Source: Amycolatopsis benzoatilytica AK 16/65 (lineage in GTDB: Bacteria > Actinomycetota > Actinomycetes > Mycobacteriales > Pseudonocardiaceae). From it: a DNA stretch of 64,000 nucleotides. This document shows positions 8,951-57,074 of the stretch, piece after piece. Position numbers and translations under genes: made by a program. The notes under the pieces are model-generated. The model saw only the letters and a list, made by a program, of their open reading frames with translations. It had not been told where the DNA came from and did no database searches. The stretch spans positions 6,258,564 through 6,322,563 of the forward strand of contig NZ_KB912942.1 in the NCBI RefSeq assembly GCF_000383915.1, written 5' to 3'. Each line of letters starts with the position of its first letter. Positions within the stretch are counted from its first letter, which is position 1.

Positions 8951-9001
8951 CCGTGAAGGGACCCTCGAGGGAATCTAAGTCCCTCAAGGTGCCCTTCACG
9001 G
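8951..9001. repeat. 3'-end palindrome family, copy 1
   Basis: This is a 51-bp inverted repeat with arms beginning CCGTGAAGGG and ending CCCTTCACGG around a short AT-richer centre. It lies 79 nt downstream of the menJ stop. The arms carry a few mismatches (for example ACCCTCGAGG against AAGGTG), making it more diverged than copies 6 and 8. Confidence 0.92.
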
Positions 9002-9079
9002 ACACTCTCCGCGCACCCACGCAGCTTCCGGGCCCACCCAGCCTCGGGCCACCCCGCCCAACCCCCGGGCAGAGACGAA

Positions 9080-10372
9080 TCAGCGAGGGCTGGGGGTAAC
9101 CCGCGCCAACGCGGCGATCAGCCGATCCACCCCGTCCCCGCCGCGGGCGTCGTAACACCCGGAAAGCCCCTTGTACACCAACGGAAGGATCTTGTTCACC
9201 CGCAACCCGTACTTGGTCGCCGCGTGCATGATCTTCGGCTTCCCGATCAGCTTCGCGAACACGTTCCCCAGCCGGTAGTACCCGCCCATCAGATCGGCGA
9301 CCGCTCGCGGGTAGCCCTCCAGCGCGCGCTCCCGCGACGGCCCTTCGGGCCGGGCCAGCGCCTGCACGACCGCCTCCGCGGCGAGCTGCGCCGACTCCAT
9401 CGCCGCCGAAATGCCCTCGCCGTTGAACGGGCTGACCATGCCGCCGGCGTCGCCGAGCAGCAGCAGCCCGTCGCGGTAGTGCGGGGTGCGGTTGAACCCC
9501 ATCGGCAGCCCGGCGCCGCCGACCTTGCCGATCGCGTTTTCCTCGCGGTAGCCCCATTCCTCCGGGGTGCCGTCGAGCCACTGGCGCAGCAGCGCGCGGT
9601 AGTCGGTGTTGCGGAAGGACGCCGAGGTGGACAGCATTCCGAGGCCGACGTTCACCGTCCCGTCGCCGAGCGGGAAGGCCCAGCCGTAGCCGGGCAGCAG
9701 CTTCGGGTCGCGCGGGTCGGAGCGGTCCCAGAGTTCGAGGTGGCCCTCGATGAACGGGTCGTCGTGCTTCGGGCTTTTGTAGTAGCGCCGCACCGCGACG
9801 CCCATCGGGCGCTTCTCGTTCTTGTCGATGCCGACGCTCAGCGCGAGCCGCGCGGACACACCGTCGCAGGCCAGCACCAGCGGGGCCCGATAGCTGACTG
9901 GCGTCTTGTCCGGCCCGACCTTCGCCTCGACGCCGACCACGCGGCCTGAGGCGTTGGTGATCGCGCTCGTCACCGTGGTGCGCTCGTACAGCCGCGCGCC
10001 CGCCTTGACGGCGGTCTTCGCGAGCAGGTCGTCGAAGTCCTGCCGGGTGCGGGAGACGCCGTAAGGCGGGTAGTCGGTGAGGTCCGGCCAGTCGAACTCG
10101 AGTGTGAGGTCGCCGGTGAGGATCCGCAGGCCGCGGCTGCGCACCCAGCCGGCGTCGGCGCTGGTGTCGATGCCGAGGTCGATCAGCTGTTTCACGCCGC
10201 GCGGCGTGAGCCCGTCGCCGCACACCTTCTCGCGAGGGAAGGCGGTCTTCTCCAGCAGCAGGACGTCCACGCCCGCCCGGGCGAGGTAGGTGGCCACGGT
10301 GGAACCGGCCGGTCCCGCCCCGACCACGATCACTTCGGCGTCGTGGTCCGGGTTGCGGCGCGAGATCGTCAT
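9080..10372 (-). CDS. menJ: Geranylgeranyl reductase family flavoprotein, probable menaquinone reductase MenJ
   Basis: This FAD-dependent reductase of 430 aa belongs to the geranylgeranyl-reductase family. The dinucleotide fold GAGPAGS is at residues 18-24 and the FAD signature GDAGGMVSPFNGEGI at 307-321; PREKVCGDGLTPRG near 46-59 is the family motif. In M. tuberculosis the homologue Rv0561c (MenJ) saturates one isoprene unit of menaquinone-9 and lies near menG, as here. The role on menaquinone is inferred from that context; reduction of another polyprenyl chain cannot be excluded. It ends 10 nt before the menG start region, same strand. Confidence 0.8.
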   Translation of the reverse strand: MTISRRNPDHDAEVIVVGAGPAGSTVATYLARAGVDVLLLEKTAFPREKVCGDGLTPRGVKQLIDLGIDTSADAGWVRSRGLRILTGDLTLEFDWPDLTDYPPYGVSRTRQDFDDLLAKTAVKAGARLYERTTVTSAITNASGRVVGVEAKVGPDKTPVSYRAPLVLACDGVSARLALSVGIDKNEKRPMGVAVRRYYKSPKHDDPFIEGHLELWDRSDPRDPKLLPGYGWAFPLGDGTVNVGLGMLSTSASFRNTDYRALLRQWLDGTPEEWGYREENAIGKVGGAGLPMGFNRTPHYRDGLLLLGDAGGMVSPFNGEGISAAMESAQLAAEAVVQALARPEGPSRERALEGYPRAVADLMGGYYRLGNVFAKLIGKPKIMHAATKYGLRVNKILPLVYKGLSGCYDARGGDGVDRLIAALARVTPSPR

Positions 10373-10382
10373 GCCGCCGATT

Positions 10383-11072
10383 TTAGGCAGGCTTGCGGCC
10401 GCGGTGGATCGCGACGACGCCGAATGTGAGGTTCAGCCATTCGACCTCGGTCCAGCCGGCGCTCGCGATGATCTCGCCGAGGCCGCGCTGATCGGGCCAG
10501 GCGAGCATGGATTCGGCCAGGTAGGAGTAGGCCTCCGGGTTGGTGGAGGACCGGCTGCCGACCCAGGTGAGCAGCTTGAGGATGAAGCGCCGGTAGACGA
10601 ACCGGATCGGCGGGAACGTGGGCGTCGACACCTCGCAGACGACCAGCCGGCCGCCCGGTTTGACCACCCGGAGGATTTCGGCGAGCGCGCCCTTGGTGTC
10701 CACGAAGTTCCGCAGCGCGAGCGAGATGGTGACCGCGTCGAAGCTCTCGTCGGCGAACGGCAGGTTCAGCGCGTCCGCGGCGACCATCGGCACCTTCCGG
10801 TGCAGGCCGGCTTTGAGCATCCCGACCGAGAAGTCGGCGGCCAGGCACCAGGCCCCGCCGCGCGCGTACTCGACGGTGGACACGCCGGTGCCGGCCGCCA
10901 GGTCGAGCACCTTCTCGCCGGGTTTGGCGTCCAGCACGCGCGCTGTGGTGGTGCGCCAGCGCCGGTCGAACCCGAACGTCATGAACGAGTTCGCCCGGTC
11001 GTAACCGGACGCGACGCCGTCGAACATCGCGGCGACATCGCGGGGATCCTTGTCCAGACTGGCGCGGGGCAT
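10383..11072 (-). CDS. menG: Demethylmenaquinone methyltransferase
   Basis: This is a class I SAM-dependent methyltransferase of the UbiE/MenG family, 229 aa, catalysing the last C-methylation that makes menaquinone. The start [20 protein letters not shown] and FDRRWR are family features. SAM-binding motif [10 protein letters not shown], is near residues 55-63, and [14 protein letters not shown] with the C-terminal [13 protein letters not shown] is typical. The organism makes menaquinone (menA, B, D and E are in the window), so menG is more fitting than ubiE. Confidence 0.93.
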
Positions 11073-11082
11073 GGGACCGAGA

Positions 11083-11742
11083 TTAGTCCGTCCGCGCCGC
11101 GCGGCGATCGCGCGGGAGCAGGACGCTCGCCACTATCAGCCAGACGAGCCCGCCGAACCGGCCGACCGGGATCAGCGGGTAAAGCGCCGGGGACAGCAGC
11201 GAGAAGCTGGCCAGGACCGCCGCCGCCGCGATCGCCAATCCGGCGATGCAGAGCCAGCGAGGCAGGAGTTTCCGGAAGAGGGCGGGTACCGCGAGCCCGG
11301 CGATCAGCAACGCCAACGGCACGACGAAGCCGGGCCCGCCGGAGGCGAAGGCGAGGCTGGTCAACGCGCGCGCGAGCCCCGGCGTGTCGGAGCTCTGGAC
11401 GGACACCCAGGTGACCAGCCCGCTCGTCGCCAGCGCCGCGGCGGACAGGACGCCGCCAGCCAGCCCGATCATCGCGCCTGGCGCGTGCACACCGAGCCGC
11501 CGCTGCCTGCGGTAGACGGTCGCCGCCCAGACGACCAGCGGAACTGACGCCCCGAAGACGGCGAAGGACAGCAGCCGCACGACCCCCTGATGCGCCGCGA
11601 GGTAGGCGGCGGTATCGGTCGCGCTGGTATCCGGTCTGGTGCCGGTCGCGCCGAGTGCGGCGGACGCGATGGTCAGGACCGCGAACGCCAGCGCCGGGGC
11701 CAGCAGCGGCGGGCCGGCCTGAGCACGGTTTAGCGTTGTCAT
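11083..11742 (-). CDS. Six-helix membrane protein, DUF4386-like
   Basis: This protein of about 219 aa has roughly six hydrophobic helices, Ala/Leu/Val-rich loops and a basic C-terminus (RDRRAARTD). It resembles DUF4386-type integral membrane proteins, for which I know no established function. I start it at ATG 11742, which has GGGAG 7 nt upstream; the frame extends to 11760 but that would overlap the ribosome-binding site. It is divergently transcribed from a MarR gene with a palindrome between them, so it is a likely target of that regulator. Confidence 0.75.
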
Positions 11743-11779
11743 GGCGAACTCCCTGGTCAAATAGTTTCACTGATGGAAC

Positions 11780-11797
11780 GATTACACTGGCGTAATC
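11780..11797. promoter_or_regulatory. Candidate MarR operator
   Basis: GATTAC(6 nt)GTAATC is an 18-bp interrupted palindrome in the 81-bp gap between two divergent genes, 26 bp before the MarR start. On the minus strand TTGACA (11806-11801) next to it could be a -35 box, so a bound dimer would overlap that promoter. Size and placement suit a MarR dimer. Confidence 0.6.
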
Positions 11798-11823
11798 AAT
11801 TGTCAAGGGATACGGTTTCGACC

Positions 11824-12282: not shown

Positions 12283-12296
12283 TTCACTCCGGCCGA

Positions 12297-12318: not shown

Positions 12319-12333
12319 GCCCCGCCGAATCCC

Positions 12334-14736: not shown

Positions 14737-15576
14737 ATGACCCTCTTGTCCTCCAGGCCGTCTCGGCCCGTCGAGCCCGGGCTGCTTTCCCGGGCCCTCG
14801 AGGTCGCCGGCCGGCTGGCGAACGACGCCACCGACGTGATCACCGCGACCGCGGGCCGCGGCGCTCACCCGGCGACGCTGGATTCGCCGTTCGACTGGGT
14901 CACCGACACCGATCGGATCCTGGAACGGCACACCCGGCGGGTGCTGACCGCCGAGTTCCCCGGGATCCCGGTGGTCGGGCACGAGTTCGGTGCCGATCAC
15001 GGGGCGGATGTCGCGGAGTACCGGTGGGTGGTCGACTCGGTCGACGGGACCGCCAACTACGTGGCCGGGGTGCCGTGGTGCGCCTACAGCCTGGCGTTGG
15101 TCGACGCCAGCGGGCCAGTGGTCGGAGTGGTGGCGGATCCGTATCGGGCGCAGATCTACGCGGCGGCTCGGGGACGCGGAGCCCGGGCCAACGGGAAGCC
15201 AGTGAGGCTGGTGGACCGGCGAGGGACGGCCGGCGCGATTGTGTGCACCGAGCTCGCCCGGAAGGGGCCGTGGCCGGGGATGGGCTCGTTCATCGAGCGG
15301 GCCGCGGCGGCGCACGCTGGGGTGCGGGTGCTGGGCTCAGCCGCGCTGTCGATCGCGCAGGTCGCGCTGGGCCATGCGGCCGCGGCGGTACTGCACAGCT
15401 ATCACGAGTGGGATGTGGCCGGATCGGTGGCGATGGCGATCGAGGCCGGGGCGGTGGTGCTCGACAAGCACGGGGAGGGGGCGGCCTTGCCGACGGACGG
15501 ACTGCTGGTGGCGGCGCCCGGGGTCGCGGACGAGGTGCTGGGCTGGTGGCAGGAATCGGCCGCCGTCCGAAACTGA
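14737..15576 (+). CDS. Inositol monophosphatase-family phosphatase
   Basis: This is a 279-aa member of the metal-dependent IMPase/HisN/CysQ superfamily. The metal-binding signature [12 protein letters not shown] (D100, D103) and [16 protein letters not shown] near residue 222 are visible. Two deviations stand out: the usual DPLDGT is DSVDGT, and the usual GEE metal ligand is GHEFG (E83). The superfamily acts on inositol phosphates, histidinol phosphate or PAP, and these residues do not decide between them. It is divergent from the mgtA operon and followed by a copy of the 3'-end palindrome. Confidence 0.85.
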
Positions 15577-15599: not shown

Positions 15600-15680
15600 C
15601 CGTGAAGGGCCCCTTCACGGAACCCAAGTCCCCCAAGGGCCCCTTCACGGAACCCAAGTCCCTCAAGGGGCCCTTCACGG
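15600..15680. repeat. 3'-end palindrome family, copy 2 (expanded)
   Basis: This 81-bp composite starts with a compact palindrome (CCGTGAAGGGCCCCTTCACGG). Two direct copies of an element beginning AACCCAAGTCCC and ending CCCTTCACGG follow. It looks like an ordinary copy in which one arm was duplicated. It starts 24 nt after the phosphatase stop and 22 nt before the end of the convergent DUF3592-type gene. Confidence 0.92.
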
Positions 15681-15701: not shown

Positions 15702-16163
15702 TCAGACCTTGGCCGGGATTGGGTTCTCGTCTCGCGCGGGCTGGTCCCGCTTCATCGCACGGCGCAGCCACCACAGGGTGGGAGCGGCGATCAGCCAGGT
15801 GATCAGCAGGGTCGTGCCCAGCGGCAGCAGGGTCAGCGTGGCGGTTCGGCCGGCGACTCGCGCCACGTCGGGGTTCGTCGCGTCGTACTCGATCGCCACC
15901 AGCTGGCCAGCGGACAGGCCGGACGGGTACAGCACGCCGGTCGCGGGGCTGTGCACGATGCCGTCCGGCGTCTGGTACTGGATGATCGTGCGGTCGAAGG
16001 CCACCGACTGGACGGTCGCGGTGGCGGTGCCCAGGTGCGATTCGATGGCGTTGTCGTTGCGGATCGCCGCGAACACCAGGCCCACGCACATCACCGTCAG
16101 CAGCGACGCGACCCCCAGCACGGCGAACCACGCGACTCGCCGTCCGTGCATTTTCCTGGCCAC
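15702..16163 (-). CDS. DUF3592-type membrane protein
   Basis: This protein of about 153 aa has one transmembrane helix near the N-terminus (VAWFAVLGVASLLTVMCVGL), an extracytoplasmic beta-rich domain (TATATVQSVAFDRTIIQYQT, then LSAGQLVAIEYDATNPDVAR) and a second helix, with a basic tail. That arrangement is typical of DUF3592 proteins, whose function I do not know. The start is unclear: GTG 16163 is used here, ATG 16148 is the other choice, and the frame runs open to 16265. It is convergent with the IMPase-like gene. Confidence 0.72.
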   Translation of the reverse strand: MARKMHGRRVAWFAVLGVASLLTVMCVGLVFAAIRNDNAIESHLGTATATVQSVAFDRTIIQYQTPDGIVHSPATGVLYPSGLSAGQLVAIEYDATNPDVARVAGRTATLTLLPLGTTLLITWLIAAPTLWWLRRAMKRDQPARDENPIPAKV

Positions 16164-16265
16164 CACGTCGGCGAGTTTAGTCCCGTGCGCCGCTTCCGCC
16201 CTGGCCGGGCGGCGACGTTCGCGATGGTGGCGCCTGCGGTGTCGTTCGCGAGCCGGGCACAGCAC

Positions 16266-21107: not shown

Positions 21108-22247
21108 TTGCACGTTTCCTGGCTGGACGGCAGCTCCGACGCGCTGGCCGCACTGGACACGGCCCTGGCCGCGGCCCTGGACGGCGGCCCGGCGGTGCTG
21201 CCGCTGAACGCGGCGGACCCGTCCGCCCCCGCGTTGCACGACGCGATGGCCCCGGACCAACCACTGGAGCCGGACACCGCGGTGGTGATCGCCACCTCCG
21301 GCTCCACCGGCGCGCCGAAGGGCGTGCTGTTGTCGCCGCGCGCGCTCATCGCGTCCGCGACCGCCACGCACGCCCGGCTCGGCGGCCCCGGCCACTGGCT
21401 GCTCGCCACGCCCGCGCACTACATCGGCGGCCTGCAGGTCCTGATTCGCGCCCGGCTGGCAGGCACGAAACCGGCGTACCTGACCGGCACCGGCTTCCGT
21501 CCGGACGAGTTCGCCGCCGCGGCCGCTCCGATCCTGGCCGAGAACGGCCCGCGCTACACCGCGCTCGTCCCGACCCAGCTCGTCCGGCTGCTCGACGACG
21601 GCGGCGCGGGCCTGGCCGCGGCCAAGGCGTTCGACGGCATCATCCTCGGCGCCGCCGCGACCTCGCCCAAGCTGCGCGCCCGGGCGGCCGAGGAAGGCGT
21701 GCGGATCGTCCCCTCGTACGGCATGAGCGAGACCGCCAGCGGCTGCGTGTACGACGGGGTGCCGCTGGACGGCGTCCGCGTCGAGCCCGACGCCGACGAA
21801 CGGATCCGGATCTCCGGTCCAGTCCTGTCGCACGGCTACCGCCTCGCGCCGGAGCTGACCGCCGAGTCCTTCCAGAACGGCTGGTTCCGCACCTCCGACC
21901 GGGGCCGGGTGCTGCCGGACGGGCGGATCGAAATCCTCGGCCGCGCGGACGACGTCATCAACACCGGCGGGGTGAAGGTTTCCGCGGCCGGCGTCGAGCG
22001 GGTGCTCGGCGCGCAGCCGGGGGTCCAGGACGCTTGCGTAGTCGGGATCCCGGACCCGCAGTGGGGCGAGGCGGTCGTCGCGATGGTGGTCGCGGACAGC
22101 GCCGACGAGGCTTCGCTGCGCGCGGCGGTCCGCGCCGAGCTGGGTGGCGCGGCGACGCCGAAGCGCATCGAGTTCACGGCGGCGCTGCCGTTGCGCGGGC
22201 CGGGGAAGATCGATCGCCAAGCGGTGAAGGCCAAGCTCGTTCCGTGA
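21108..22247 (+). CDS. menE: o-Succinylbenzoate--CoA ligase
   Basis: This ANL-superfamily adenylating enzyme of 379 aa activates o-succinylbenzoate to its CoA thioester, the substrate route to MenB. The AMP-binding loop TSGSTGAPKG is at 63-72. SYGMSETASGCVYDG, SDRGRVLPDGRIEILGRADD and the C-terminal LRGPGKIDRQAVKAKL (catalytic Lys) follow. It is short for the superfamily, as actinobacterial MenE proteins are. The start is TTG 21108. Its TGA stop (22245-22247) lies inside the left arm of a 3'-end palindrome. Confidence 0.92.
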   Translation: MHVSWLDGSSDALAALDTALAAALDGGPAVLPLNAADPSAPALHDAMAPDQPLEPDTAVVIATSGSTGAPKGVLLSPRALIASATATHARLGGPGHWLLATPAHYIGGLQVLIRARLAGTKPAYLTGTGFRPDEFAAAAAPILAENGPRYTALVPTQLVRLLDDGGAGLAAAKAFDGIILGAAATSPKLRARAAEEGVRIVPSYGMSETASGCVYDGVPLDGVRVEPDADERIRISGPVLSHGYRLAPELTAESFQNGWFRTSDRGRVLPDGRIEILGRADDVINTGGVKVSAAGVERVLGAQPGVQDACVVGIPDPQWGEAVVAMVVADSADEASLRAAVRAELGGAATPKRIEFTAALPLRGPGKIDRQAVKAKLVP

Positions 22248-22292
22248 AGGGAACCTTGCGGAACTCTGAGTCCCTCAAGGTTCCCTTCACGG
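22242..22292. repeat. 3'-end palindrome family, copy 3 (supplies the menE stop)
   Basis: This is a 51-bp inverted repeat. The TGA that ends menE is bases 4-6 of the repeat (CCGTGA), so the last Pro codon and the stop come from the repeat itself. It separates menE from menA. Confidence 0.93.
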
Positions 22293-25931: not shown

Positions 25932-25948
25932 CCCGTTTCACCGCTCGC

Positions 25949-26021
25949 GACGAAGGGTCGTGGCTGACAAGGGATGTCCCCCTGCTCGCGGGACATCGCT
26001 TGCCGGTCACGACCCTTCGCC
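25949..26021. terminator. Long imperfect hairpin downstream of bldC
   Basis: CGAAGGGTCGTG (25951-25962) pairs perfectly with CACGACCCTTCG (26008-26019). An inner GATGTCCC (25973-25980) pairs with GGGACATC (25990-25997). The middle is partly paired, giving a stem of about 34 bp. It is larger than a simple terminator and could also be a stable 3' UTR or a small RNA precursor. Confidence 0.65.
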
Positions 26022-26114
26022 GCGTTCCGGCGGCGCCTTTACCGATACCGGCTGCACGCGATCGCGCCGAAGAACGGCTAACCTGGGTGGCTGGCACGTC
26101 GGAAGGACCCGGGC

Positions 26115-26300
26115 ATGATTCTTTTGCTCGCAGCGGTGGGCGCGATCACCATCGCCGTTCTGTTGTGGCGGGCACTGGGCGCGCAGCGGATCAGCGTCCC
26201 GCAGCGCCGCCCGGCCATCGCACCGGACGACGACCCGGAGTTCCTGCGCAAGCTCTCCGAACAGCAGCGCAAACGCCCGACCGACGAAACCGACGGCTGA
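26115..26300 (+). CDS. Small membrane-anchored protein
   Basis: This 61-aa protein has one N-terminal helix (MILLLAAVGAITIAVLLW) and a polar tail with DDDPEFLRKLSEQQRKR. Short proteins of this shape are widespread in actinobacteria, with no known function. It lies between the bldC hairpin and a 3'-end palindrome; the next gene is convergent. Coding is supported by the clean helix-plus-amphipathic-tail layout. Confidence 0.65.
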   Translation: MILLLAAVGAITIAVLLWRALGAQRISVPQRRPAIAPDDDPEFLRKLSEQQRKRPTDETDG

Positions 26301-26330: not shown

Positions 26331-26380
26331 CCGTGAAGGGAACTTCGAGAGACTCTGAGTCCCTCAAAGTTCCCTTCACG
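26331..26380. repeat. 3'-end palindrome family, copy 4
   Basis: This inverted repeat of about 50 bp lies between convergent genes. It is 30 nt after the small membrane protein stop and 9 nt beyond the stop of the MinD-like gene. It can therefore serve either gene. Confidence 0.92.
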
Positions 26381-26389
26381 ACCACAAAG

Positions 26390-27706
26390 TCAGCGGTACT
26401 GCTGTCCGCCGAACCCGTCCGCGACGGTCGCCGCGAGCTCCAGCAACGCCAGCCGGGTATCCCCGCCCAGCCGCTCCAGCTCGATCTCGGCACCTTCTTC
26501 CAGGTGCGCGTCGAACGGAATCCGGCACACCGCCCGCACCTTCGCCCCGAAATGCGCGGCCAGCTTGTCCAGGTCGACCGAGCTTCCCTTCGGCCGCACC
26601 GAGTTGATCACCACCACCGACCGCTTCACCAGGTCGCCGTACCCGTGCGCGTCCAGCCAGTCCAACGTGGCCGAAGCACTGCGCGCCCCGTCCACCGACC
26701 CGGACGACACCACGACCAGCGAATCCGCGACGTCCAGCACGCCCTTCATCGCCGAGTGCATCAAACCGGTTCCGCAGTCGGTGAGCACGATGTTGTAGAA
26801 GTGCTCCAGCAGGTTCACCGTCCGCCGGTAGTCGTTCTCGGAGAACGCCTCCGACACCGCCGGGTCCTGCTCGCTGGCCAGGATCTCCAGCCGGCTGGAG
26901 CCCTGCGACGTGTACGACCGGACGTCGCTGTACCGCGTGATCTTGTCCGCGTCCCGCAGCAGATGGCGCACCGTCGCGGTCGTCTCGATGGCGATCTTCT
27001 GCGACAGCGTCCCCCGGTCCGGGTTCGCGTCCACCGCCACCACCCGGTCCCCGCGCAGGGACGCGAACGTCGCCCCCAGGGTGGTCGTGGTCGTGGTCTT
27101 GCCGACCCCGCCCTTGAGGCTCAGCATGGCGATCTTGTAGCACCCGCGCAGCGGCTGGTTGACGCGCGCGATCAACTCCCGTCGACGCGTGTCCGCCGGG
27201 CTCTCCCCCGGGTTGATCAGCTTGCCGCTGCCCCGGTAAAGCGCCTTCCGCCAGCCGGACTGCGGTGCCCGTTTCTGCTGCTTCACCAGGTGCGCCGTCG
27301 CCAGCTCGTCCGCACCGGAGGTCGGCTGCGGCAACCCCGCACCGCCCGGCTGACCGGGTTGCCCCGGGTGTCCAGGCTGTCCGGGAGCCGCCTGTGGCGG
27401 GTACCCGGCCGGAGCTTGCTGCTGCGGATGCGGCTGATGCGGCGGCACGGCCTGCCCCGGATCGCCCGGCGGCTGCAAGGGCGGCAGGTTGTGGTCGTAC
27501 TGCGCTTGATACCCGCCCGGCTGCGGCAGCGGCTGATACGCGGCCTGCGGCGGCGGGTCGACGGCCTGCGTCGGCTGCGCGTCGTACGGCCCGGCGACCG
27601 CCGGATGCGGCGTGGAATCGGTGCGTTCCTCGGAGAACATGGCAGCCGGTTCCTGGGCCTGCTCGGGCTGCTGCTCTCCGGCAGCCCCTTCACTGGGTCC
27701 GGTCAC
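26390..27706 (-). CDS. MinD/ParA-like P-loop ATPase with Pro/Gln-rich N-terminus
   Basis: This 438-aa protein has an N-terminal 130 residues dominated by Pro, Gln, Gly and Tyr, probably disordered. It is followed by a deviant Walker A ATPase domain, SLKGGVGKTTTTTTLGA (residues about 196-212), with VDANPDRG and NIVLTDCGTG as further MinD-type motifs. Proteins of this type include the ATPases linked to ESX secretion and to polar localisation. No ESX gene lies in the window, so the role is open. The nearest neighbour on the same strand is ccsB, 84 nt upstream. Confidence 0.85.
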   Translation of the reverse strand: MTGPSEGAAGEQQPEQAQEPAAMFSEERTDSTPHPAVAGPYDAQPTQAVDPPPQAAYQPLPQPGGYQAQYDHNLPPLQPPGDPGQAVPPHQPHPQQQAPAGYPPQAAPGQPGHPGQPGQPGGAGLPQPTSGADELATAHLVKQQKRAPQSGWRKALYRGSGKLINPGESPADTRRRELIARVNQPLRGCYKIAMLSLKGGVGKTTTTTTLGATFASLRGDRVVAVDANPDRGTLSQKIAIETTATVRHLLRDADKITRYSDVRSYTSQGSSRLEILASEQDPAVSEAFSENDYRRTVNLLEHFYNIVLTDCGTGLMHSAMKGVLDVADSLVVVSSGSVDGARSASATLDWLDAHGYGDLVKRSVVVINSVRPKGSSVDLDKLAAHFGAKVRAVCRIPFDAHLEEGAEIELERLGGDTRLALLELAATVADGFGGQQYR

Positions 27707-31280: not shown

Positions 31281-31331
31281 CCGTGAAGGGCCCCTTGAGG
31301 GACTTGGATTCCCGGAAGGGCCCCTTGACGG
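31281..31331. repeat. 3'-end palindrome family, copy 5
   Basis: This 51-bp inverted repeat is inside the minus-strand resA-ccdA gap, 56 nt beyond the resA stop. One arm has CCTTGACGG in place of CCTTCACGG. An extra partial arm (GACTTAGATTCC) follows it. Its position inside an operon suggests it modulates rather than ends transcription. Confidence 0.9.
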
Positions 31332-31386
31332 ACTTAGATTCCGAGACACTGCCGAACCGGGCGACCACGACCGTCGGCGATGCCGG

Positions 31387-31965
31387 TCACTTCTCCGCGG
31401 CAAGACCCCGCACTACCGGCACCAGGTCCGCCGCCAGCACCTGCCGCAAAAACACCGCCGCCACCCGATGTTCCTTGTCCAGGACGATCGTCGACGGAAT
31501 GATGTTCCGCGGGTACCCGGACAACTGCAGCAACACCCGTCCGGAGGGGTCCCAGATCGACGGATACGTCAGCCCGCGGTCCCGCACGAAATCCTGCGCC
31601 ACGTCCCGGGCCGGATCCCGCACGTCCAGCCCCAGCACCTGCGCCCCCAGCGGCGCGATCTCCTTGCTGGCCTTCTCCAGCTCCGGCGCCTCCGCGCGGC
31701 ACGGTCCGCACCACTGCCCCCACAGATTGATCACCAGCGCCTTGCCGGGGAAATCCGCCAGGGAAAGCTGCTTTCCTTCCTGCATCAGATCGTCACCGGC
31801 CAGCACGGGCGCCTTCTGCCGTTGCGCCACCGGGTACGAGATATCCACCTTGCCGCCCGGCGAAACGAACGAGAACGTCCCGCCGGAGACCACCGCGTCC
31901 TTGCCGGTCGAGCAGCCGGCCACCCCGAGCGCGGCGGCTAACAACACGAAAAGCAGTCGCTTCAT
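31387..31965 (-). CDS. resA: TlpA/ResA-family thiol-disulfide lipoprotein
   Basis: This thioredoxin-fold reductase of 192 aa is anchored outside the membrane. It has a lipobox, LGVAGC, with the lipid-bearing Cys at about residue 18, and the active site WGQWCGPCRAEAPELE. It should receive electrons from CcdA and reduce apocytochrome c. It starts at ATG 31965, overlapping the previous gene by 4 nt. Its position before ccdA-resB-ccsB matches the M. tuberculosis Rv0526-Rv0529 order as I recall it. Confidence 0.9.
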   Translation of the reverse strand: MKRLLFVLLAAALGVAGCSTGKDAVVSGGTFSFVSPGGKVDISYPVAQRQKAPVLAGDDLMQEGKQLSLADFPGKALVINLWGQWCGPCRAEAPELEKASKEIAPLGAQVLGLDVRDPARDVAQDFVRDRGLTYPSIWDPSGRVLLQLSGYPRNIIPSTIVLDKEHRVAAVFLRQVLAADLVPVVRGLAAEK

Positions 31966-40783: not shown

Positions 40784-40808
40784 GGTACTCCCGCGCTTAC
40801 CCCGAAAG

Positions 40809-40859
40809 CCGTGAAGGGCCCCTTGAGGGAAGTAGATTCCCTCAAGGGGCCCTTCACGG
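40809..40859. repeat. 3'-end palindrome family, copy 6 (perfect)
   Basis: Two perfect 23-bp arms (40809-40831 and 40837-40859) surround a 5-nt loop, GTAGA. It begins 9 nt beyond the hemD stop and ends 25 nt before the hemB start. This copy gives the clearest consensus of the family. Confidence 0.95.
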
Positions 40860-40868
40860 ACAGAGACC

Positions 40869-42401
40869 TCAGCTGCGCCGGGTCCGCTTGGCCTTCCGAG
40901 GCGGAGGCAGCGCGCCCTCCGCACGAAGCCGGGCGGCGTGCTCGGCGAGGGCGTCCACCAGGTGCGGCACGTCCGCCTTCTCCGGCTGGACGTCCACTCG
41001 CAGACCGAATTCCACGGCGGTCTCCGCGGTCTTCGGCCCGATGCACGCGACCAACGTGCGGGTGTGCGGCTTCCCGGCGATGCCCACCAGGTTGCGCACG
41101 GTCGACGACGAGGTGAAGCAGACCGCGTCGAACCCGCCGGTCTTGATCATCTCGCGGGTCTCGGCTGGCGGCGGGGCCGCCCGGACGGTCCGGTAGGCGG
41201 TGACGTCGTCCACTTCCCAGCCCCGCTCGATCAGGCCGGCCGACAGGATCTCGGTGGCGATGTCCGCCCGCGGCAGCAGCACCCGGTTGACCGGGTCCAG
41301 CACGTCGTCGTACGGCGGGAACTCGGCCAGCAGGCCCTCCGACGACTGCTCGCCGGTCGGCACCAGCTCCGGGATGATGCCGAACGAACGGACCTTCGCC
41401 GCGGTCGATTCGCCGACGCAGGCGATCTTCACGCCGGAGAACGCGCGTGCGTCCAGCCCGAACTCCTCGAACTTCTCCCACACCGCGCGCACCGCGTTGG
41501 TGGAGGTGAAGACGATCCACTGGTAACGGCCGTCGACCAGGCCCTTGACCGAGCGCTCCATCTGCGCCGGGCTGCGGGGCGGCTCGACGGAGATCGTCGG
41601 CACCTCGTGCGAGGTCGCGCCGTGGCCGCGCAGGCGCTCGGCCATTTCGCCGGCCTGCTCCTTGGTGCGCGGCACCAGGACCTTCCAGCCGTACAGCGCG
41701 CGCGACTCCCACCAGGACAGCTTCGAGCGGTGCCCGGCGGCCTGCCCGACCGTCACGACCAGCGGGCCGACGAGCTCGCCCGCGTCGTTGGCGACCGAGG
41801 CCAGCGTGGTGTCGAGGGTGCGCTGGGTGTTGATGGTGCCGTTCGCGGTGACCGCGACCGGCGTCGTGGACGGCAGCCCCTTCTCGGTGAGCCGGCTCGC
41901 CGCCTCGGCCAGGTGCGCCGAGGTCGCGTGCAGCACGATCGGGCCGGGGGAAGCGGCCAGCGCGCCCCAGTCGACCTCGCCGCGCACGTCCGCCTCGGTG
42001 TAGGTGCCGCCGAGCGCGACTCCCGCGTAGGCGGGCACCGCGGTGCCCGGCGGGACGCCCGGGATGACGTCGAAAACAGCCGACGTGCGGGCCACGGCCT
42101 GCACCTCGGCCACGACGGCCGGACTGGTCAGCGGGTCACCGGAGACCAGGCGCAGCGCGAGCCGGCCTGCTTTGGCCTCGGAGGTCAGGTCCTTCGCGAC
42201 GTCGGACGGCTCACCGACGGCGGGCCGGACCTCGGCGCCCGGGGCGGCGAACGCGAGTACGCCGGCCGGCACGTCCGGGTCCGTCACCACGACCTCGGCC
42301 TTGGCCAAGAGTTCCTGGGCGCGGACGGTGAGCAGCCCGGCGTCCCCGGGGCCCGAGCCCACGAAGGCGACACGCCCGGCGGTCTTGCGAGCAGGGGTCA
42401 T
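40869..42401 (-). CDS. hemD: Fused uroporphyrinogen-III C-methyltransferase / uroporphyrinogen-III synthase
   Basis: This 510-aa two-domain protein begins with residues 1-245 as a CobA-like SAM methyltransferase ([52 protein letters not shown]). From about 255 it is a HemD-type uroporphyrinogen-III synthase ([51 protein letters not shown]). The fusion sits at the branch to sirohaem and cobalamin and is usual in actinobacteria. Some methyltransferase motifs look diverged, so that activity is less certain. ATG 42401 has GAGGAG about 13 nt upstream. Confidence 0.92.
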
Positions 42402-51360: not shown

Positions 51361-52446
51361 GTGGGCGTGCCCGGGTGGTTTTCGCGGGGTCGGACCGAGA
51401 GCGATCGGTTCGACGACGCAGTCAACGCGTCTCCCGGCGCTCGTCCGGACGAGTTCGCCGAAGAACTGGCGCTGGTCGGCGCCCTGCGCGAACTGGGCCA
51501 AGCAGGCAGTCCCGACCTGGCGACCCGGACCCGGATCCGCACCGAAATCGAAAGCCGCATCGGCGAGCCGCTGCCCCGTCGTCACTGGCGCCCGCGGATG
51601 GCCGACCTGGTCGCCGCCGGCATCGCGCTGTTCCTCGGACTGACCGGCCTGACTCTGCTGCTGTCCCGCGACGCCGTCCCCGGCGATGCGCTGTACCAGG
51701 TGAAACGAGCCGGCGAGGTGACCTCGCTGGGGCTGACCTTCGGGGACGCCGCCAAGGCCGAACGCCACCTGGAGTTCGCCGCCAACCGCGTCGCCGACCT
51801 GGGCCGGATGGACGAGGCCAGTCCCGCCGCGTACCAGGTCGCGCTGACCGATTTCAGCAGCGACCTGCGAGCCGGCGTCGCCGGGCTCACCGAACTGGCG
51901 ACGAAGAGCAGCGACCACGCCCGGCTGGCGGCCCTGCAGTCCTGGGCGCAAACCCAGTCGAGCGCGCTGCAGGCGGAAGAACCGGCTATCCCGGCCGAAG
52001 CCCGCGACGGCTTCCAGCGCGCCCAGTCGCTCCTGTCCCGGGTCCAGCAGCGCACCACCGCTCTCGGCTCCCGGCTGAACTGCTACCGCATCACCACTGG
52101 AACCACCGACGAGCTGGGCCTGCTGCCCGCCCACGGCGCCTGCACCCAGCAACCGGTCACGCCGCCCAGCCTGCCGACCCCGGACAGCCCAGCCCCCAGC
52201 GTCCCGGCAACCGGCTCGCCGCTGCCGCTGCACTCGGTGTCCTCGCCCAACCTCGGCACCCCCGGCACCTCCGCTCCCACCCGGCTGCCCACCTCGACGA
52301 GCGTGCCGCACCCCGCCGCCCCGCCCACCGTCCCCGCACCGATCCCCGCCCCCACCGCGCCGAGGATCCCGTCCCAGCCACCGCCGCCCCCGGTGATCTC
52401 GGTACCTCCAGTGCTGCCCGGCCTGCCCCCCATCGTCGTCGGCTAA
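51361..52446 (+). CDS. DUF5667 membrane protein, probable anti-sigma factor for BldN
   Basis: This 361-aa protein has a cytoplasmic N-terminal 85 residues, one helix (MADLVAAGIALFLGLTGLTL), an extracytoplasmic DUF5667-like helical domain (RHLEFAANRVADLGRMDEAS) and a C-terminal 100 residues rich in Pro, Ser and Thr, suited to spanning the wall. GTG 51361 has GGAG 7 nt upstream. In Streptomyces the gene after bldN encodes the anti-sigma RsbN; the same position and topology suggest that role here, unproven. Confidence 0.75.
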   Translation: MGVPGWFSRGRTESDRFDDAVNASPGARPDEFAEELALVGALRELGQAGSPDLATRTRIRTEIESRIGEPLPRRHWRPRMADLVAAGIALFLGLTGLTLLLSRDAVPGDALYQVKRAGEVTSLGLTFGDAAKAERHLEFAANRVADLGRMDEASPAAYQVALTDFSSDLRAGVAGLTELATKSSDHARLAALQSWAQTQSSALQAEEPAIPAEARDGFQRAQSLLSRVQQRTTALGSRLNCYRITTGTTDELGLLPAHGACTQQPVTPPSLPTPDSPAPSVPATGSPLPLHSVSSPNLGTPGTSAPTRLPTSTSVPHPAAPPTVPAPIPAPTAPRIPSQPPPPPVISVPPVLPGLPPIVVG

Positions 52447-52448
52447 GT

Positions 52449-52499
52449 CCGTGAATGGCCCCTTGAGAGACTGGGATTCCGTTAAGGGGCCCTTCACGG
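52449..52499. repeat. 3'-end palindrome family, copy 7
   Basis: This inverted repeat starts 2 nt after the DUF5667 gene stop. Several arm positions are diverged (GAATGGCC, TTCCGTTAAGG), but the outer CCGTGAA and TTCACGG ends are intact. Confidence 0.9.
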
Positions 52500-53578: not shown

Positions 53579-53582
53579 CCTT

Positions 53583-53934: not shown

Positions 53935-53937
53935 GCC

Positions 53938-54954
53938 TCAGCCGCGGAAAATGCTCCGCCGCTGGGAAAGCCGCTGGTACAGCGACTGCTGGATGGACTC
54001 GCGCACCTGGTCGGTGAGCGTGAACACGAGCATCGGGTCGTCCACCGCGTCCGGACCCAGCTCGTCGGTGCGGATCAGCTGGCCGAACTCGATCGTCCAC
54101 TTCGTCGGCAACGGCATCGCGCCGAGCGGACCGAACAGCGGGAAGAACGGGGTGACCGGGAAATAGGGCAGGCCGAACAGCCGGGCCAGCACCTTCAGAT
54201 CGCCGATCTTCGGGTACGTCTCCTCGGCACCGACCACCGACACCGGGATGATCGGCACGCCCGCGCGCATCGCCGCGGACACGAATCCGCCGCGGCCGAA
54301 GCGCTGCAGCTTGTACCGCGCGGAGAACGGCTTGCCGACGCCCTTGAAGCCCTCCGGCCACACGCCGACCAGCTCACCGTTGGCGAGCAGCCGCTCGGCG
54401 TCGGCGTTGCAGGCCAGCGTCTGCCCGGACTTGCGCGCGAACGAACCCACCAGCGGCAGCTTGAACACCAGGTCCGCGCCAAGCCCGCGCAGATGCCGGC
54501 CGCCGGTCTCGTCGTGTACCGCGACGGCCGTCATCAGCGCGTCCAGCGGCAAGGTGCCGGAATGGTTGGACACCAGCAGCGCACCACCGGCCTTCGGCAG
54601 GTTCTCGACGCCGAACGTGTCGACCCGGAACCATTTCTCGTACAGCGCGCGCAGCGGCGGCAGGACGAGCGCCTCGGTCAGCTCGGCGTCGAAACCGAAC
54701 TCGTCCACCTCGTAGTCGCCGGTGAGCCGGTGCCGCAGGAAGGTGAGCGCGTTGCGCACCGGCTCCGACAGCGGATCGGCTTCCGGCGCTTGGGGCGCAG
54801 GCACCGGGAATTCGACGACGGGCGCTTCCGCCCGCGTTTCCACCTGCTGCGGGATCTCGACCGGCTTCTCCCGGCCGGGCTTGTGCAGCGGAATGACCTG
54901 TGCCTCGGCACCGTTCACGGGGTGCACCTCACTTCCGGCCCTCGCGTGGTTCAT
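53938..54954 (-). CDS. Lysophospholipid acyltransferase-family protein (PlsC-like)
   Basis: This 338-aa protein has a Pro/Glu-rich N-terminal 75 residues, then an acyltransferase domain with LLVSNHSGTLPLDALMT, a variant of the NHX4D motif, and GVWPEGFKGVGKPFS as the phosphate-binding motif. A membrane-interacting hydrophobic face is expected. It is coupled by 4 nt to the epimerase gene, the same pair as Rv0502 and Rv0501 in M. tuberculosis. Acceptor unknown. Confidence 0.83.
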   Translation of the reverse strand: MNHARAGSEVHPVNGAEAQVIPLHKPGREKPVEIPQQVETRAEAPVVEFPVPAPQAPEADPLSEPVRNALTFLRHRLTGDYEVDEFGFDAELTEALVLPPLRALYEKWFRVDTFGVENLPKAGGALLVSNHSGTLPLDALMTAVAVHDETGGRHLRGLGADLVFKLPLVGSFARKSGQTLACNADAERLLANGELVGVWPEGFKGVGKPFSARYKLQRFGRGGFVSAAMRAGVPIIPVSVVGAEETYPKIGDLKVLARLFGLPYFPVTPFFPLFGPLGAMPLPTKWTIEFGQLIRTDELGPDAVDDPMLVFTLTDQVRESIQQSLYQRLSQRRSIFRG

Positions 54955-55997
54955 CGGCGCGCCTGCCCGGTGGCGGCGGCCTCAAGCACCTTGCCGGCCA
55001 GACCGGCGAGCGCGGTGCCGTCGAGCACCGGACGCAGGCCGCGGCCGGCCACGTAGTCGTCGAACGCCTCGCGGGTGGTCCAGCGCGGCGTGTACCCGAA
55101 TTCCTTCTTGAGCTTCGTGATGTCGATCGCGCGGCCGTAGTTCAGCAGCCGCACCTGATCGGCGGAGAAATCGACCAGCCGCGCGCCGCGCAGCAGCTTC
55201 CCGACCGACGGCACCACGCCGCGCGGCATCGGCAACCCGACCCGGCCCGCCCGGCGGATCGCCTGCGACAACGTGATCACGCCCTCGGACGCCACGTTGA
55301 ACACTCCCGGCTTGTCCTCCAGCGTCGCCAGTTCGAGCACCGAGAGCGCGTCTGAGGCGTGCAGCAGCTGCAGACGGGCGTCGTAACCGAAGACGGTGGG
55401 TACGACCGGCAGCGAGAAGTAGCGCGCCAGCACGGTGTCGACCTCGGGGCCGATGATGTTCGCGAACCGGGCGAGCGTGATGGTCAGGTCCGGGCGGCGA
55501 CGGGCCAATCCGCGTACGTAACCCTCCATCTCCACCGCGTCCTTCGCGTACCCGCTGGGAGCGGGCGGGATCAGCTCGGACTCCTCGGTGAAGACCGCCT
55601 GCGAACGCGCGCCCGCGCCGTACACGGCGGCACTGGACTTGACGACCAGTTTGCGCACCTTCGGTGCCCGCTGGCACGCCGCGAGCAGCCGCATGGTGCC
55701 GATGACGTTGACTTCCTTGACCGCCGCGCGCCGGCTCGGCCCGGCCGGATGCGCGGTGCACGAGGTGTGCACGACGGTGTCCACCTCAGCGCTGCTGATC
55801 ACCTTCGCGATCAGCGGGTTGCGGATGTCCGCGCGGACGAACTCGGCCCGGCCCATCCGCTGCTGCACGGACTTGGCCGGCGGCGCGGTGTCGACGCCGA
55901 TCACCCGCTCGAACTCCGGGTTGGCGCCGAGCCGGGCGAGAAGCTTCCCGCCAAGGTCGCCGGCGACCCCGGTGACGAGCACGATGTTCGAAGCCAT
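54951..55997 (-). CDS. NAD-dependent epimerase/dehydratase, GalE2-like
   Basis: This extended SDR protein of 348 aa has nucleotide motif LVTGVAGDLGGKLLARL near the N-terminus. The catalytic-type YAKDAVEMEGYV has the Tyr-x-x-x-Lys pattern shifted to YAKDA. ATG 55997 has AGGGAG 4 nt upstream. The M. tuberculosis homologue is Rv0501, named GalE2, but UDP-galactose epimerisation is not shown by the sequence. It is coupled to the PlsC-like gene. Confidence 0.8.
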   Translation of the reverse strand: MASNIVLVTGVAGDLGGKLLARLGANPEFERVIGVDTAPPAKSVQQRMGRAEFVRADIRNPLIAKVISSAEVDTVVHTSCTAHPAGPSRRAAVKEVNVIGTMRLLAACQRAPKVRKLVVKSSAAVYGAGARSQAVFTEESELIPPAPSGYAKDAVEMEGYVRGLARRRPDLTITLARFANIIGPEVDTVLARYFSLPVVPTVFGYDARLQLLHASDALSVLELATLEDKPGVFNVASEGVITLSQAIRRAGRVGLPMPRGVVPSVGKLLRGARLVDFSADQVRLLNYGRAIDITKLKKEFGYTPRWTTREAFDDYVAGRGLRPVLDGTALAGLAGKVLEAAATGQARR

Positions 55998-56198
55998 GGA
56001 TCTCCCTGTCGACGCCGATGCGGCAGTGATCACTCGAGGTGCGCGAGCCTGCACTCAGGGGAAGCATCGCGCGGACGCACCACCCATGTTACTGGCCGTT
56101 CGGGAGCACCTGACCAGCGCTAACCCGGTTTTAACAAGCGATGCTCAGAATGCGATCCGGGCCTCACTCGATCGGAGGAAACGGGTCCGAACATGAGT

Positions 56199-56227
56199 GT
56201 GGCCCGTCCAGAGACTGGACGGGCCAC
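56199..56227. terminator. Terminator hairpin after the bS22 gene
   Basis: GTGGCCCGTCCA and TGGACGGGCCAC form a perfect 12-bp stem with a 5-nt loop, 24 bp beyond the stop of the tiny ribosomal protein gene on the minus strand. It also separates that gene from the epimerase. Confidence 0.8.
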
Positions 56228-56250
56228 GAAACGCTAGCCGCGCGGACGGC

Positions 56251-56352
56251 TCACTTGCCGGCCTTGCGCCGCTGCACGCGCGTGCGGCGGAGCAACTTGC
56301 GGTGCTTCTTCTTGGACATGCGCTTGCGGCGCTTCTTGATTACGGAACCCAT
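56251..56352 (-). CDS. Small ribosomal subunit protein bS22 (AURKAIP1/COX24 domain)
   Basis: This 33-aa very basic protein ([20 protein letters not shown], then [13 protein letters not shown]) is encoded between a hairpin and the upstream region of an HTH gene. It is too short to be caught by simple ORF calling. The sequence matches the actinobacterial 33-residue protein Rv0500B, identified as bS22 in mycobacterial ribosome structures near the decoding centre. Gene order also matches M. tuberculosis. Confidence 0.93.
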
Positions 56353-56552
56353 GGGCGCTCCTCAGTTGTCGTCGGTCACGCTGCCCGGCGCAGCGTCCAA
56401 CGGGTGGAGCGCACAGGCACGAGCGGTTTACCAGGCTACTAGCGTCCCGACGCGGGCCGGTCGGCGGGCATGGTTTGACTCATGCCCGCGACCGATCGCC
56501 CCTTCGCCGCCCCGTTGCCGCGCAGTGCGGAACGGGGTCCGGCGAGGTGGCG

Positions 56553-56768
56553 CTACCCGACGTCGAAGTAGGCGCCCCGCAGGTACTCGTGCACCGCTTT
56601 TTCCGGCACCCGGAAGGACTTCCCGACTCTCACCGCGGGAAGCTCGCCGGAGTGCACGAGGCGGTACACGGTCATCTTGGAGACCCGCATGAGCGTGGCT
56701 ACCTCAGCGACTGTCAAAAACTGGACCTGCCCAACCGCGGGCAAATCCTCCTTCTTGTTCGGCGACAT
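56553..56768 (-). CDS. Excisionase-type helix-turn-helix protein (Rv0500A-like)
   Basis: This 71-aa single MerR/excisionase-type winged helix reads VQFLTVAEVATLMRVSKMTV, then GELPAVRVGKSFRVPEKAVH. ATG 56768 gives MSPNKKEDLP. It is a housekeeping gene in actinobacteria, lying between proC and bS22 as here, and not a phage remnant. It is related in fold to BldC encoded at 25719, but the two are clearly different proteins. Target unknown. Confidence 0.88.
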   Translation of the reverse strand: MSPNKKEDLPAVGQVQFLTVAEVATLMRVSKMTVYRLVHSGELPAVRVGKSFRVPEKAVHEYLRGAYFDVG

Positions 56769-57023
56769 GTTTACCGCGTCCTTCGACACGTGTCGCGCCA
56801 CGAGGCTTCCCCACCTGTGGTATCGACACGCACGTGCTCTTCCGAGAGTAGCGGGACAGGTGGGACTCGTGCGACGCCTGTCACCAGGATGGGCCCTCAC
56901 CTGCGGCTTCCACTAGCCCGGACGGCGCAACGGCACCCGGAATACCGGTTTCGGCGAATCAAGGGCGCGCGGGCAAGGGAGACCGGGACCACCCCGAATG
57001 CCGCCTTGACTCCCGGCTCCCGG

Positions 57024-57074
57024 CCGTGAAGGGAACCTTGAGGGACTCTGAGTACCTCAAGGTTCCCTTCACGG
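57024..57074. repeat. 3'-end palindrome family, copy 8
   Basis: This 51-bp inverted repeat has 20-bp perfect outer arms (CCGTGAAGGGAACCTTGAGG) around a short centre. It lies 39 nt beyond the proC stop, in the gap of 344 bp between proC and the HTH gene. The rest of that gap shows no gene. Confidence 0.95.

What the first reader, a model, noticed from the sequence alone, without database searches (positions are those of the whole stretch)
8951..57074. A family of about 51-bp palindromes occurs eight times, always just after a stop codon
Copies at 8951, 15600, 22242, 26331, 31281, 40809, 52449 and 57024 share outer ends CCGTGAAGGG and CCCTTCACGG, with a central GTCCCTCA-like stretch. All eight lie within about 80 bp downstream of some gene's stop codon, and none lies inside a gene body. 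Arms range from perfect (40809) to diverged. The placement suggests a transcription end, mRNA 3'-end stabiliser or protein-bound site. A REP-like mobile palindrome that tolerates only 3' ends is the alternative.
Basis: partly seen in the sequence, partly recalled or inferred. Interest (0 to 1): 0.78.

Follow-up and report, generated by a model that had tools for sequence, protein, structure and literature searches.

The report
Copied palindromes that end genes
Hundreds of near-identical 51-letter mirror-image DNA elements sit where genes end in this soil bacterium and appear to stand in for the usual stop-transcription hairpins, which matters because they look like gene terminators that spread by copying yet lack the transposase that normally moves such repeats.

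Summary
The eight palindromes belong to a family (F1) with 229 exact-ended copies in this genome, by kinship an Amycolatopsis. Of 180 copies with at most 3 end mismatches in 2.4 Mb, 80 lie between convergent genes, 77 between tandem genes (mostly nearer the upstream stop), 10 between divergent genes, 10 overlap an ORF call and 3 are at stretch edges.

Four results favour a 3'-end function over a merely tolerated repeat. Copies per convergent gap hardly grow with gap length. Gaps with a copy are poor in other hairpins: 8 of 54 against 27 matched. At hemD, relatives carry other hairpins at the same place. Shared copies differ by paired arm changes. Against an RNA role: no U-tract, no G-U over A-C excess.

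F1 shares one geometry with families of unlike sequence: two half-palindromes centred 30 bp apart (17+13+17 bp). This resembles REPINs, but no Y1 transposase was detected in 80 genus genomes.

Best reading: REPIN-like doublets, spread by an unknown route, serving as U-tract-less bidirectional 3'-end hairpins. No RNA data were available; function is inferred.

The parts
8951..9001 (.). F1 palindrome, 78 bp beyond the stop of the FAD-dependent oxidoreductase-like gene 9080-10372(-)
   Evidence: relative G012 has a different 59-bp hairpin here
15600..15680 (.). F1 three-unit form (17-13-17-13-17 plus ends) between convergent genes 14737-15576(+), inositol monophosphatase family, and 15702-16166(-)
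   Evidence: F1 also in G012
22242..22292 (.). F1 palindrome whose own TGA (22245-22247) is the stop codon of the AMP-binding enzyme gene 21108-22247(+)
   Evidence: F1 with paired arm changes in G012
26331..26381 (.). F1 palindrome between convergent genes 26115-26300(+) and 26390-27706(-), a MinD/ParA-like ATPase
   Evidence: among 30 genus loci only the own one shows F1 as its best hairpin here
31281..31342 (.). F1 palindrome with partial extra 30-bp unit, 55 bp beyond the stop of the AhpC/redoxin-like gene 31387-31965(-)
   Evidence: F1 in G012
40809..40859 (.). F1 palindrome with perfect 23-bp arms, 9 bp beyond the stop of the hemD/tetrapyrrole methylase fusion gene 40869-42401(-)
   Evidence: same site in relatives
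52449..52499 (.). F1 palindrome, 2 bp beyond the stop of the DUF5667 gene 51361-52446(+)
   Evidence: no hairpin of note at the G012 site
57024..57074 (.). F1 palindrome, 38 bp beyond the stop of the proC-like gene 57113-57925(-)
   Evidence: the G012 site holds the F2 family instead
1039..1117 (.). Second family (F2), three-unit CCCAATG..CATTGGG array with the same 30-bp period; lies inside ORF 718-3222(-)

Best explanation
F1 is a REPIN-like repeat: a fixed-geometry doublet of two short palindromes (17+13+17 bp core, 51 bp with the outer CC/GG) that has multiplied inside Amycolatopsis genomes. As RNA either strand folds into one long hairpin. Copies are kept where they act as 3'-end hairpins, standing in for ordinary terminators of one gene or of two convergent genes at once. 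With no U-tract, the likely role is to stop or pause RNA polymerase in the manner of tail-less terminators, or to cap and protect 3' ends made by Rho. SHOWN here by sequence: the family, its geometry, its 3'-side placement, shortage of other hairpins beside copies, swapping of hairpin families at orthologous ends, paired changes, and no detectable Y1 transposase. INFERRED: termination or protection activity, and spread by copying through an unidentified machinery.
For: Placement: convergent 80, tandem 77, divergent 10, against length-based expectations of 34, 89 and 44 for 167 copies; 62 of 68 tandem copies in roomy gaps lie nearer the upstream stop. Per-gap occupancy: copies per convergent gap scale as length^0.16 (95% 0.07-0.28), and slope 1 is rejected (2dLL 119). 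Shortage of other hairpins: joined flanks hold another hairpin in 8 of 54 convergent gaps against 27.1 in length-matched whole gaps (16.9 if those are split at the same place); tandem 5 of 53 against 13.7 (11.4). Orthologous ends: 64 of 80 hemD 3' ends carry a hairpin scoring 10 or more, of several palindrome families or ordinary U-tailed form. Swaps with F2 in both directions between own and G012. Five shared copies: 13 pairs changed on both sides and paired in both, 18 changed on one side, 3 changed on both sides otherwise, 91 unchanged. RNA of two actual copies folds at -45.6 and -48.2 kcal/mol. Geometry: half-palindrome score peaks at exactly 30 bp in F1 and F2 and in F3 and genus g59; 30 of 30 copies in two other genera are 51 bp although 40-60 bp was allowed.
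Against: No transcript data. No U-tract: mean T 1.24 in the last 5 plus next 8 bases, against 3.08 for ordinary hairpins. In tandem sites, sense G-U and A-C mismatches are equal (39 vs 38 over pairs 1-22; 52 vs 59 over pairs 1-25), so there is no sign of strand-specific RNA pairing selection; a sense-side T excess is marginal (p = 0.049). Within roomy convergent gaps position is uniform (0.252 against 0.25, n = 21). The hairpin shortage in tandem gaps was not significant in the unmatched test (p 0.06, 0.34, 0.13 at three thresholds), and no p-value was computed for the matched one. At least one copy follows a U-tailed terminator (gene at window-relative coordinate 90334, outside the window). 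7 of 16 own family-bearing ends have no hairpin scoring 12 in G012. Ten of 180 copies sit between divergent genes.
Confidence: 0.62

Rival explanations
1. Neutral REP-like mobile palindrome: copies insert anywhere between genes and survive only at 3' ends because insertions near promoters and in genes are selected out.
For: Presence/absence differences between species; species-specific interior sequences; anatomy like REPINs; tandem copies are rare in the 80 bp before start codons; no sense-strand pairing asymmetry; uniform position in roomy convergent gaps.
Against: In convergent gaps copies do not scale with length; density falls from 7.5 to 0.25 per kb as the gap grows; other hairpins are scarce beside copies even after the flanks are joined.
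Confidence: 0.2
2. DNA-level binding site: the palindrome is bound as duplex or cruciform DNA by a nucleoid, topology or anti-collision factor placed between converging transcription units.
For: Outer ends and the centre are conserved in sequence beyond pairing (the outer ends partly by ascertainment); the fixed 30-bp spacing is about three helical turns; pairing changes show no RNA-strand bias.
Against: Interior sequences are replaced in paired fashion and whole families swap at one site, which a sequence-reading protein would not tolerate easily; ordinary terminator hairpins occupy the same slot at hemD.
Confidence: 0.11
3. Ordinary terminators homogenised by gene conversion: no mobility, only sequence exchange between pre-existing hairpins.
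For: Conserved hairpin position at hemD with changing sequence; copies shared with G012 differ by whole arm types, the G012 ones often of the CTCC type that G010 and G024 also show.
Against: Sites with a copy in one species and no strong hairpin in the other; the same 51-bp geometry with different interiors in other genera; no 30-bp doublet signal in even-length hairpins.
Confidence: 0.07

Closest known systems
REPINs (inverted REP doublets) mobilised by RAYT transposases, as in Pseudomonas fluorescens SBW25 (PMC3116915 and PMC8049555, passages seen)
   Same: Two inverted short palindromes forming one long hairpin, conserved ends, variable interior with compensatory changes, tandem higher-order forms, high extragenic copy number.
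   Different: No Y1_Tnp (PF01797) match in any of 80 genus genomes; a 30-bp spacing shared by families of unlike sequence; near-constant occupancy per convergent gap and scarcity of other hairpins beside copies, whereas that abstract calls REP doublets randomly distributed in extragenic space.
GTAG- and CGTC-tagged REPs (PMC3733652, passages seen)
   Same: High-copy extragenic palindromes; CGTC repeats are also said to lack a dedicated transposase.
   Different: F1 is symmetric and its flanks show no GTAG or CGTC tag. The main text of that paper has 0 hits for actinobacteri*, Amycolatopsis, Saccharopolyspora and Streptomyces.
REP candidates predicted by RepRanger (PMC12306157, passages seen)
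   Same: Extragenic palindromes told apart from Rho-independent terminators by the lack of a T-rich tail; three Actinomycetota genomes are in its table (Arthrobacter, Acidipropionibacterium, Acidimicrobium).
   Different: A generic prediction; the passages seen describe no family with this geometry, and Streptomyces, Mycobacterium and 'convergent' have 0 hits there.
Highly structured U-lacking 3' ends / I-shaped terminators of Streptomyces clavuligerus (PMC8269248, passages seen)
   Same: Strong GC-rich stem-loop at RNA 3' ends without a U-tract; 353 of 535 structured 3' ends there are U-lacking.
   Different: The passages treat them as separate hairpins with no repeat family mentioned; F1 is one dispersed family of fixed length.
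Terminators made of inverted uptake-signal pairs (Haemophilus; PMC5217627, passages seen)
   Same: A repeated word in inverted pairs forms terminator hairpins.
   Different: The F1 10-mer rarely occurs singly (20 of 255 without a partner), so it is not a scattered signal that happens to pair.

Membership tests
REPIN / REP-RAYT system | Doublet of inverted palindromes forming a hairpin, high copy, extragenic | tested here: met
REPIN / REP-RAYT system | Cognate RAYT (Y1_Tnp) in the genome or lineage, flanked by the repeats | tested here: not met
   PF01797 at E <= 0.001: 0 of 80 genus genomes, control genomes 5 of 14 positive (own genome)
REPIN / REP-RAYT system | Demonstrated excision or transposition | not testable with these tools
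   presence/absence between species seen but no strain-level data were held
GTAG/CGTC REP superfamilies | Unpaired GTAG or CGTC tetranucleotide at one end | tested here: not met
   flanks are symmetric, mostly T before and A then C after, on both sides alike
Intrinsic (Rho-independent) terminator | GC-rich hairpin just downstream of a stop codon | tested here: met
Intrinsic (Rho-independent) terminator | U-tract immediately after the hairpin | tested here: not met
   T run of 3 or more in 5% of 237 family ends against 21% of 239 ordinary hairpin ends
Tail-less (I-shaped / HS-U-lack) 3'-end hairpin | Mapped RNA 3' end at the hairpin | not testable with these tools
   no RNA data for this organism
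MITE of a DDE transposon | Target-site duplication | tested here: not met
   direct flank matches of 2-9 bp at offsets 0-5 are not consistently above shuffles; a few small excesses, such as 3 of 180 with identical 9-bp flanks against 0.1, fit the 9-bp spacer of tandem units (that last reading is inference)
MITE of a DDE transposon | Parent transposase carrying the same ends | tested here: inconclusive
   9 of the 45 genes lying between neighbouring copies (400-3500 bp apart) were scanned, plus one gene holding a copy; no transposase. The rest of the genome was not scanned for transposases other than PF01797

The most novel reading that the evidence does not exclude
A superfamily of terminators that spread by copying in Pseudonocardiaceae: palindromic doublets whose sequence is replaceable but whose 17-13-17 geometry and often TCNGA-like centre are kept, multiplied by a non-Y1 machinery that recognises two hairpins 30 bp apart, and recruited in bulk as interchangeable bidirectional transcription ends.
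Probability: 0.4. Interest if true: 0.86.

Novelty: new variant of a known kind. Interest (0 to 1): 0.72.

Why it matters
If right, about a quarter of convergent gene pairs in this genome (77 of 300 non-overlapping gaps) share one spreading repeat at their ends, and terminators can be replaced by copies of an element. It would give REPIN-like repeats a concrete benefit to the host and point to an unknown copying machinery. It also offers compact bidirectional terminator candidates for high-GC actinomycete engineering and makes the disputed role of U-tract-less hairpins directly testable, since hundreds of natural copies and their orthologous replacements can be compared.

Tried and rejected
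Chance palindromes: rejected. A known Rfam RNA: 0 matches in the window at gathering thresholds. RAYT-driven REPIN: no PF01797 in the own genome or in 80 genus genomes. MITE with target-site duplication: no consistent signal. A scattered single signal that pairs by accident: 235 of 255 10-mers are already paired. Transposase between neighbouring copies: none in the 9 of 45 such genes scanned. Carriage on plasmids or phages: no match for the 40805-40863 copy at E 1e-5. Sense-strand G-U tolerance as proof of RNA function: not seen, reported as evidence against. Within-gap position test in convergent gaps: no effect, n = 21. A first gene-calling run trained on the longest ORFs seemed to pick antisense shadows and was discarded; the run seeded on third-position GC was used throughout. 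A first, unmatched hairpin-exclusion test is biased because copies split their gaps, and was followed by a matched one; both are cited.

In print: searches (0 papers) showed no description of this family among the rows they listed; several of them held more papers than were listed. One search covered the two 10-mers, two 17/16-mers and two 14/15-mers as words: 49 papers hold one, and the 20 listed are on unrelated subjects. Most subscription journals are not in the library. Eight papers were seen as passages only; the others only as search listings. 'I-shaped' and Rho are used as in those passages or recalled.
Full report
WHAT WAS CHECKED. The window lies at 6,258,564-6,322,563 of a one-contig, 8.70-Mb genome. 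All eight palindromes exist as described. Two corrections: the copy at 22242 supplies the stop codon of its gene from its own CCG-TGA, and the ends are not exact in every copy (left 7 of 8, right 6 of 8). Ten genes of the window next to copies were identified with Pfam, nine with a match.

FAMILY SIZE. The pattern of the two exact 10-mers with 20-40 bases between gives 229 sites in the whole genome, control 0. In six 400-kb stretches chosen by position (2.4 Mb), 180 sites have 3 mismatches or fewer in the 20 end bases; the reversed control has 1. That is 75 per Mb, or about 650 per genome if the sample is representative. Among the 80 genus genomes held, 32, own included, have exact-ended copies (own 229, next 148). 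In a draw of 120 family genomes 6 have them: own plus 5 from two other genera. None of 24 genomes from other families of the order has them.

PLACEMENT. Of 180 copies, 80 are between convergent genes, 77 between tandem genes, 10 between divergent genes, 3 at a stretch edge and 10 overlap an ORF call. Expectations by free intergenic length, for the 167 clean ones, are 34, 89 and 44. In tandem gaps with 100 bp or more of room, 62 of 68 are nearer the upstream stop. Density is highest within about 80 bp of a stop and low within 80 bp of a start. In convergent gaps the share of gaps with a copy changes little with length: 16 of 59, 28 of 78, 18 of 52, 7 of 33 and 5 of 24 for residual lengths 20-50, 50-100, 100-200, 200-400 and above 400 bp, with 3 of 54 below 20 bp. 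A Poisson fit gives slope 0.16 on log length (bootstrap 95% 0.07-0.28), and slope 1, the neutral expectation, is rejected.

SUBSTITUTION FOR TERMINATORS. If copies were indifferent to terminators, their gaps should contain other hairpins as often as other gaps do. The test used gaps with one copy and 40-400 bp of other sequence (54 convergent, 53 tandem). With the copy removed and flanks joined, 8 of 54 convergent gaps hold another hairpin (score 9 or more) against 27.1 expected from length-matched whole gaps; at score 12 or more it is 4 against 18.1. Tandem: 5 of 53 against 13.7, and 3 against 8.8. The stricter comparison, in which control gaps are split at the same relative place, gives 8 against 16.9 and 5 against 11.4 (score 9). 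Joined flanks showed no more hairpins than separate flanks, so there is no sign that copies landed inside older hairpins, if insertion loses no bases. The earlier unmatched test gave the same direction, significant for convergent gaps only. Across species, the 3' end of the hemD fusion gene was examined in own plus 80 named loci of Amycolatopsis, other Pseudonocardiaceae and a few Rhodococcus and Prescottella. One was truncated; 64 of the remaining 80 have a hairpin scoring 10 or more within about 60 nt of the stop. Sorted by eye these include F1 (own, A. dendrobii, A. jejuensis, A. echigonensis; the truncated A. nivea locus also begins as F1), a GTGAAGGCCCCC version (A. keratiniphila, A. roodepoortensis, with an ATGAAGG variant in A. 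coloradensis), F2-like forms (A. vastitatis, CA-128772, MtRt-6, Prauserella), an F3-like form (A. bullii), and ordinary U-tailed hairpins in others. At the 3' end of the MinD/ParA-like gene, F1 was the best hairpin only in own among 30 loci; others have weak hairpins or other palindromes.

OWN VERSUS ONE RELATIVE. G012 is about 82-92% identical to the window over the main syntenic blocks. At the eight window sites it has the same family at four (40809, 22242, 15600, 31281), a different strong hairpin at two (8951; 57024, where it is F2), a weaker different hairpin at one (26331), and nothing of note at one (52449). Over 160 kb of G012, 141 of 179 own genes had an ortholog and 98 3' ends with at least 45 bp of gap were tabulated, convergent copies being counted once from each side. 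Own-family ends (16): G012 family 7, other hairpin scoring 12 or more 2, none 7. Own ends with another hairpin (20): 2, 10, 8. Own ends with none (62): 4, 2, 56. Four G012 family calls rest on 5 mismatches and look spurious; moving them gives 6/3/7, 1/11/8 and 2/3/57. A family swap also occurs in the other direction, with F2 in own and F1 in G012 (gene at window-relative coordinate 64984, just outside the window).

PAIRED CHANGES. In five copies shared with G012 (the four above and one at window-relative coordinate 155140, outside the window), of 125 pairs 91 are unchanged, 13 changed on both sides and paired in both, 3 changed on both sides otherwise, and 18 changed on one side. Within the own genome, double changes in 158 distinct copies total 157 against 97 (SD 7, maximum 118) in 500 shuffles; relatedness of copies inflates this. 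Interiors differ by species: AACATT and CCCCTT types in own, mostly CTCCTT in the listed copies of G010, G024 and G069.

GEOMETRY. F1 is two imperfect 17-bp palindromes centred 30 bp apart, around a 13-bp core whose centre is TCNGA or a close variant: in 165 copies T24 153, C25 117 (T 46), G27 123 (A 41), A28 153. Half-palindrome score by spacing peaks at exactly 30 bp: F1 own 0.72 against a median of 0.21 over spacings (n = 97); F2 own 0.80 against 0.25 (n = 15); F1-like of relatives 0.64 (n = 35); other odd-length hairpins of relatives 0.45 against 0.26 (n = 42), of which 6 have their best score, at least 6/7, at 30 bp and 1 at another spacing. Some of these 42 are copies of one family, so they are not all independent. 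Even-length hairpins show no peak at 30, and the other odd hairpins of the own genome only a weak one (0.37, equalled at 19). The relative set includes two own loci, L132 and L162. F3 (GTGAATGACTCATTC..) has 41-60 copies in four other species, fewer in five more and none in own; 18 copies score 0.92 at 30 bp with TCNGA in 13. F2 is found in 10 of 80 genomes, own included. In two other genera the F1 ends enclose a different interior, yet 30 of 30 copies are 51 bp although 40-60 bp was allowed. In g59 the score at 30 bp is 0.74 (next 0.49) with TCNGA in 12 and CCNGA in 9 of 24; in g26 the evidence is weak (0.47, next 0.44; CCNGA in 2 of 5). Longer forms have a 30-bp period in both F1 and F2. An ordinary hairpin terminator needs no such ruler, so the geometry is probably a mark of how the element is copied; that is inference.

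RESULTS AGAINST. No U-tract. Sense G-U and A-C mismatches are equal (39 vs 38 over pairs 1-22; 52 vs 59 over pairs 1-25). Copies in roomy convergent gaps are not closer to a stop than chance (n = 21). A sense-side T excess is marginal. One copy follows a U-tailed terminator. No consistent target-site duplication, no Y1 transposase match, no hit in plasmids or phages.

HOW IT MOST LIKELY WORKS. Either strand's RNA folds into a hairpin of 22-24 bp (-48.2 and -45.6 kcal/mol for two copies; mean -36.9, range -51.3 to -16.3, over 158 distinct copies). Because the element is a palindrome, one copy can serve both members of a convergent pair. Without a U-tract it should act as a tail-less terminator, or as a block to exonucleases after Rho termination, as proposed for U-lacking structured ends in Streptomyces clavuligerus (PMC8269248, passages). 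How it multiplies is unknown; REPINs give the nearest model (PMC3116915, passages), minus their enzyme.

LIMITS. One genome was tallied in part, gene starts are approximate, the relatives used for counts are unnamed, pattern searches with exact ends undercount diverged copies, the detailed two-genome comparison rests on one relative, and there is no RNA evidence.

Noticed in passing
window 1039-1117: A second 30-bp-period palindrome family (CCCAATG..CATTGGG, F2); of 17 clusters in 2.4 Mb 12 are in tandem gaps, 3 in convergent gaps, 2 in ORF calls and none in divergent gaps. This copy lies inside ORF 718-3222(-), about 320 bp before its stop.
   Followed up: partly
window 25946-26024: A 35-bp-arm imperfect hairpin (CGAAGGGTCGTG..CACGACCCTTCG) upstream of gene 26115-26300 with similar hairpins in the G012, G024, G026 and G028 loci; a candidate regulatory RNA.
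   Followed up: no
L151, L199, L206, L215, L258: A further set of even-length palindromes with GTGAG.. ends (CGTGAGTGG..CCACTCACG in some) and a GGTTNTAACC-like centre.
   Followed up: no
L078:15511-17586 (+), copy near genome position 3136808: An F1 copy inside a 691-aa ORF with an FGE-sulfatase domain match after it; either a tolerated insertion or two genes called as one.
   Followed up: partly
window 61919-63305: Many overlapping tandem repeats of 9-132 bp within ORF 61813-63576(-), a repetitive protein.
   Followed up: no
genome near 399707 and 331652 (stretch S1): Clusters of three neighbouring F1 copies 9-69 bp apart, some only partly matching, which may be growth or decay intermediates.
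   Followed up: no
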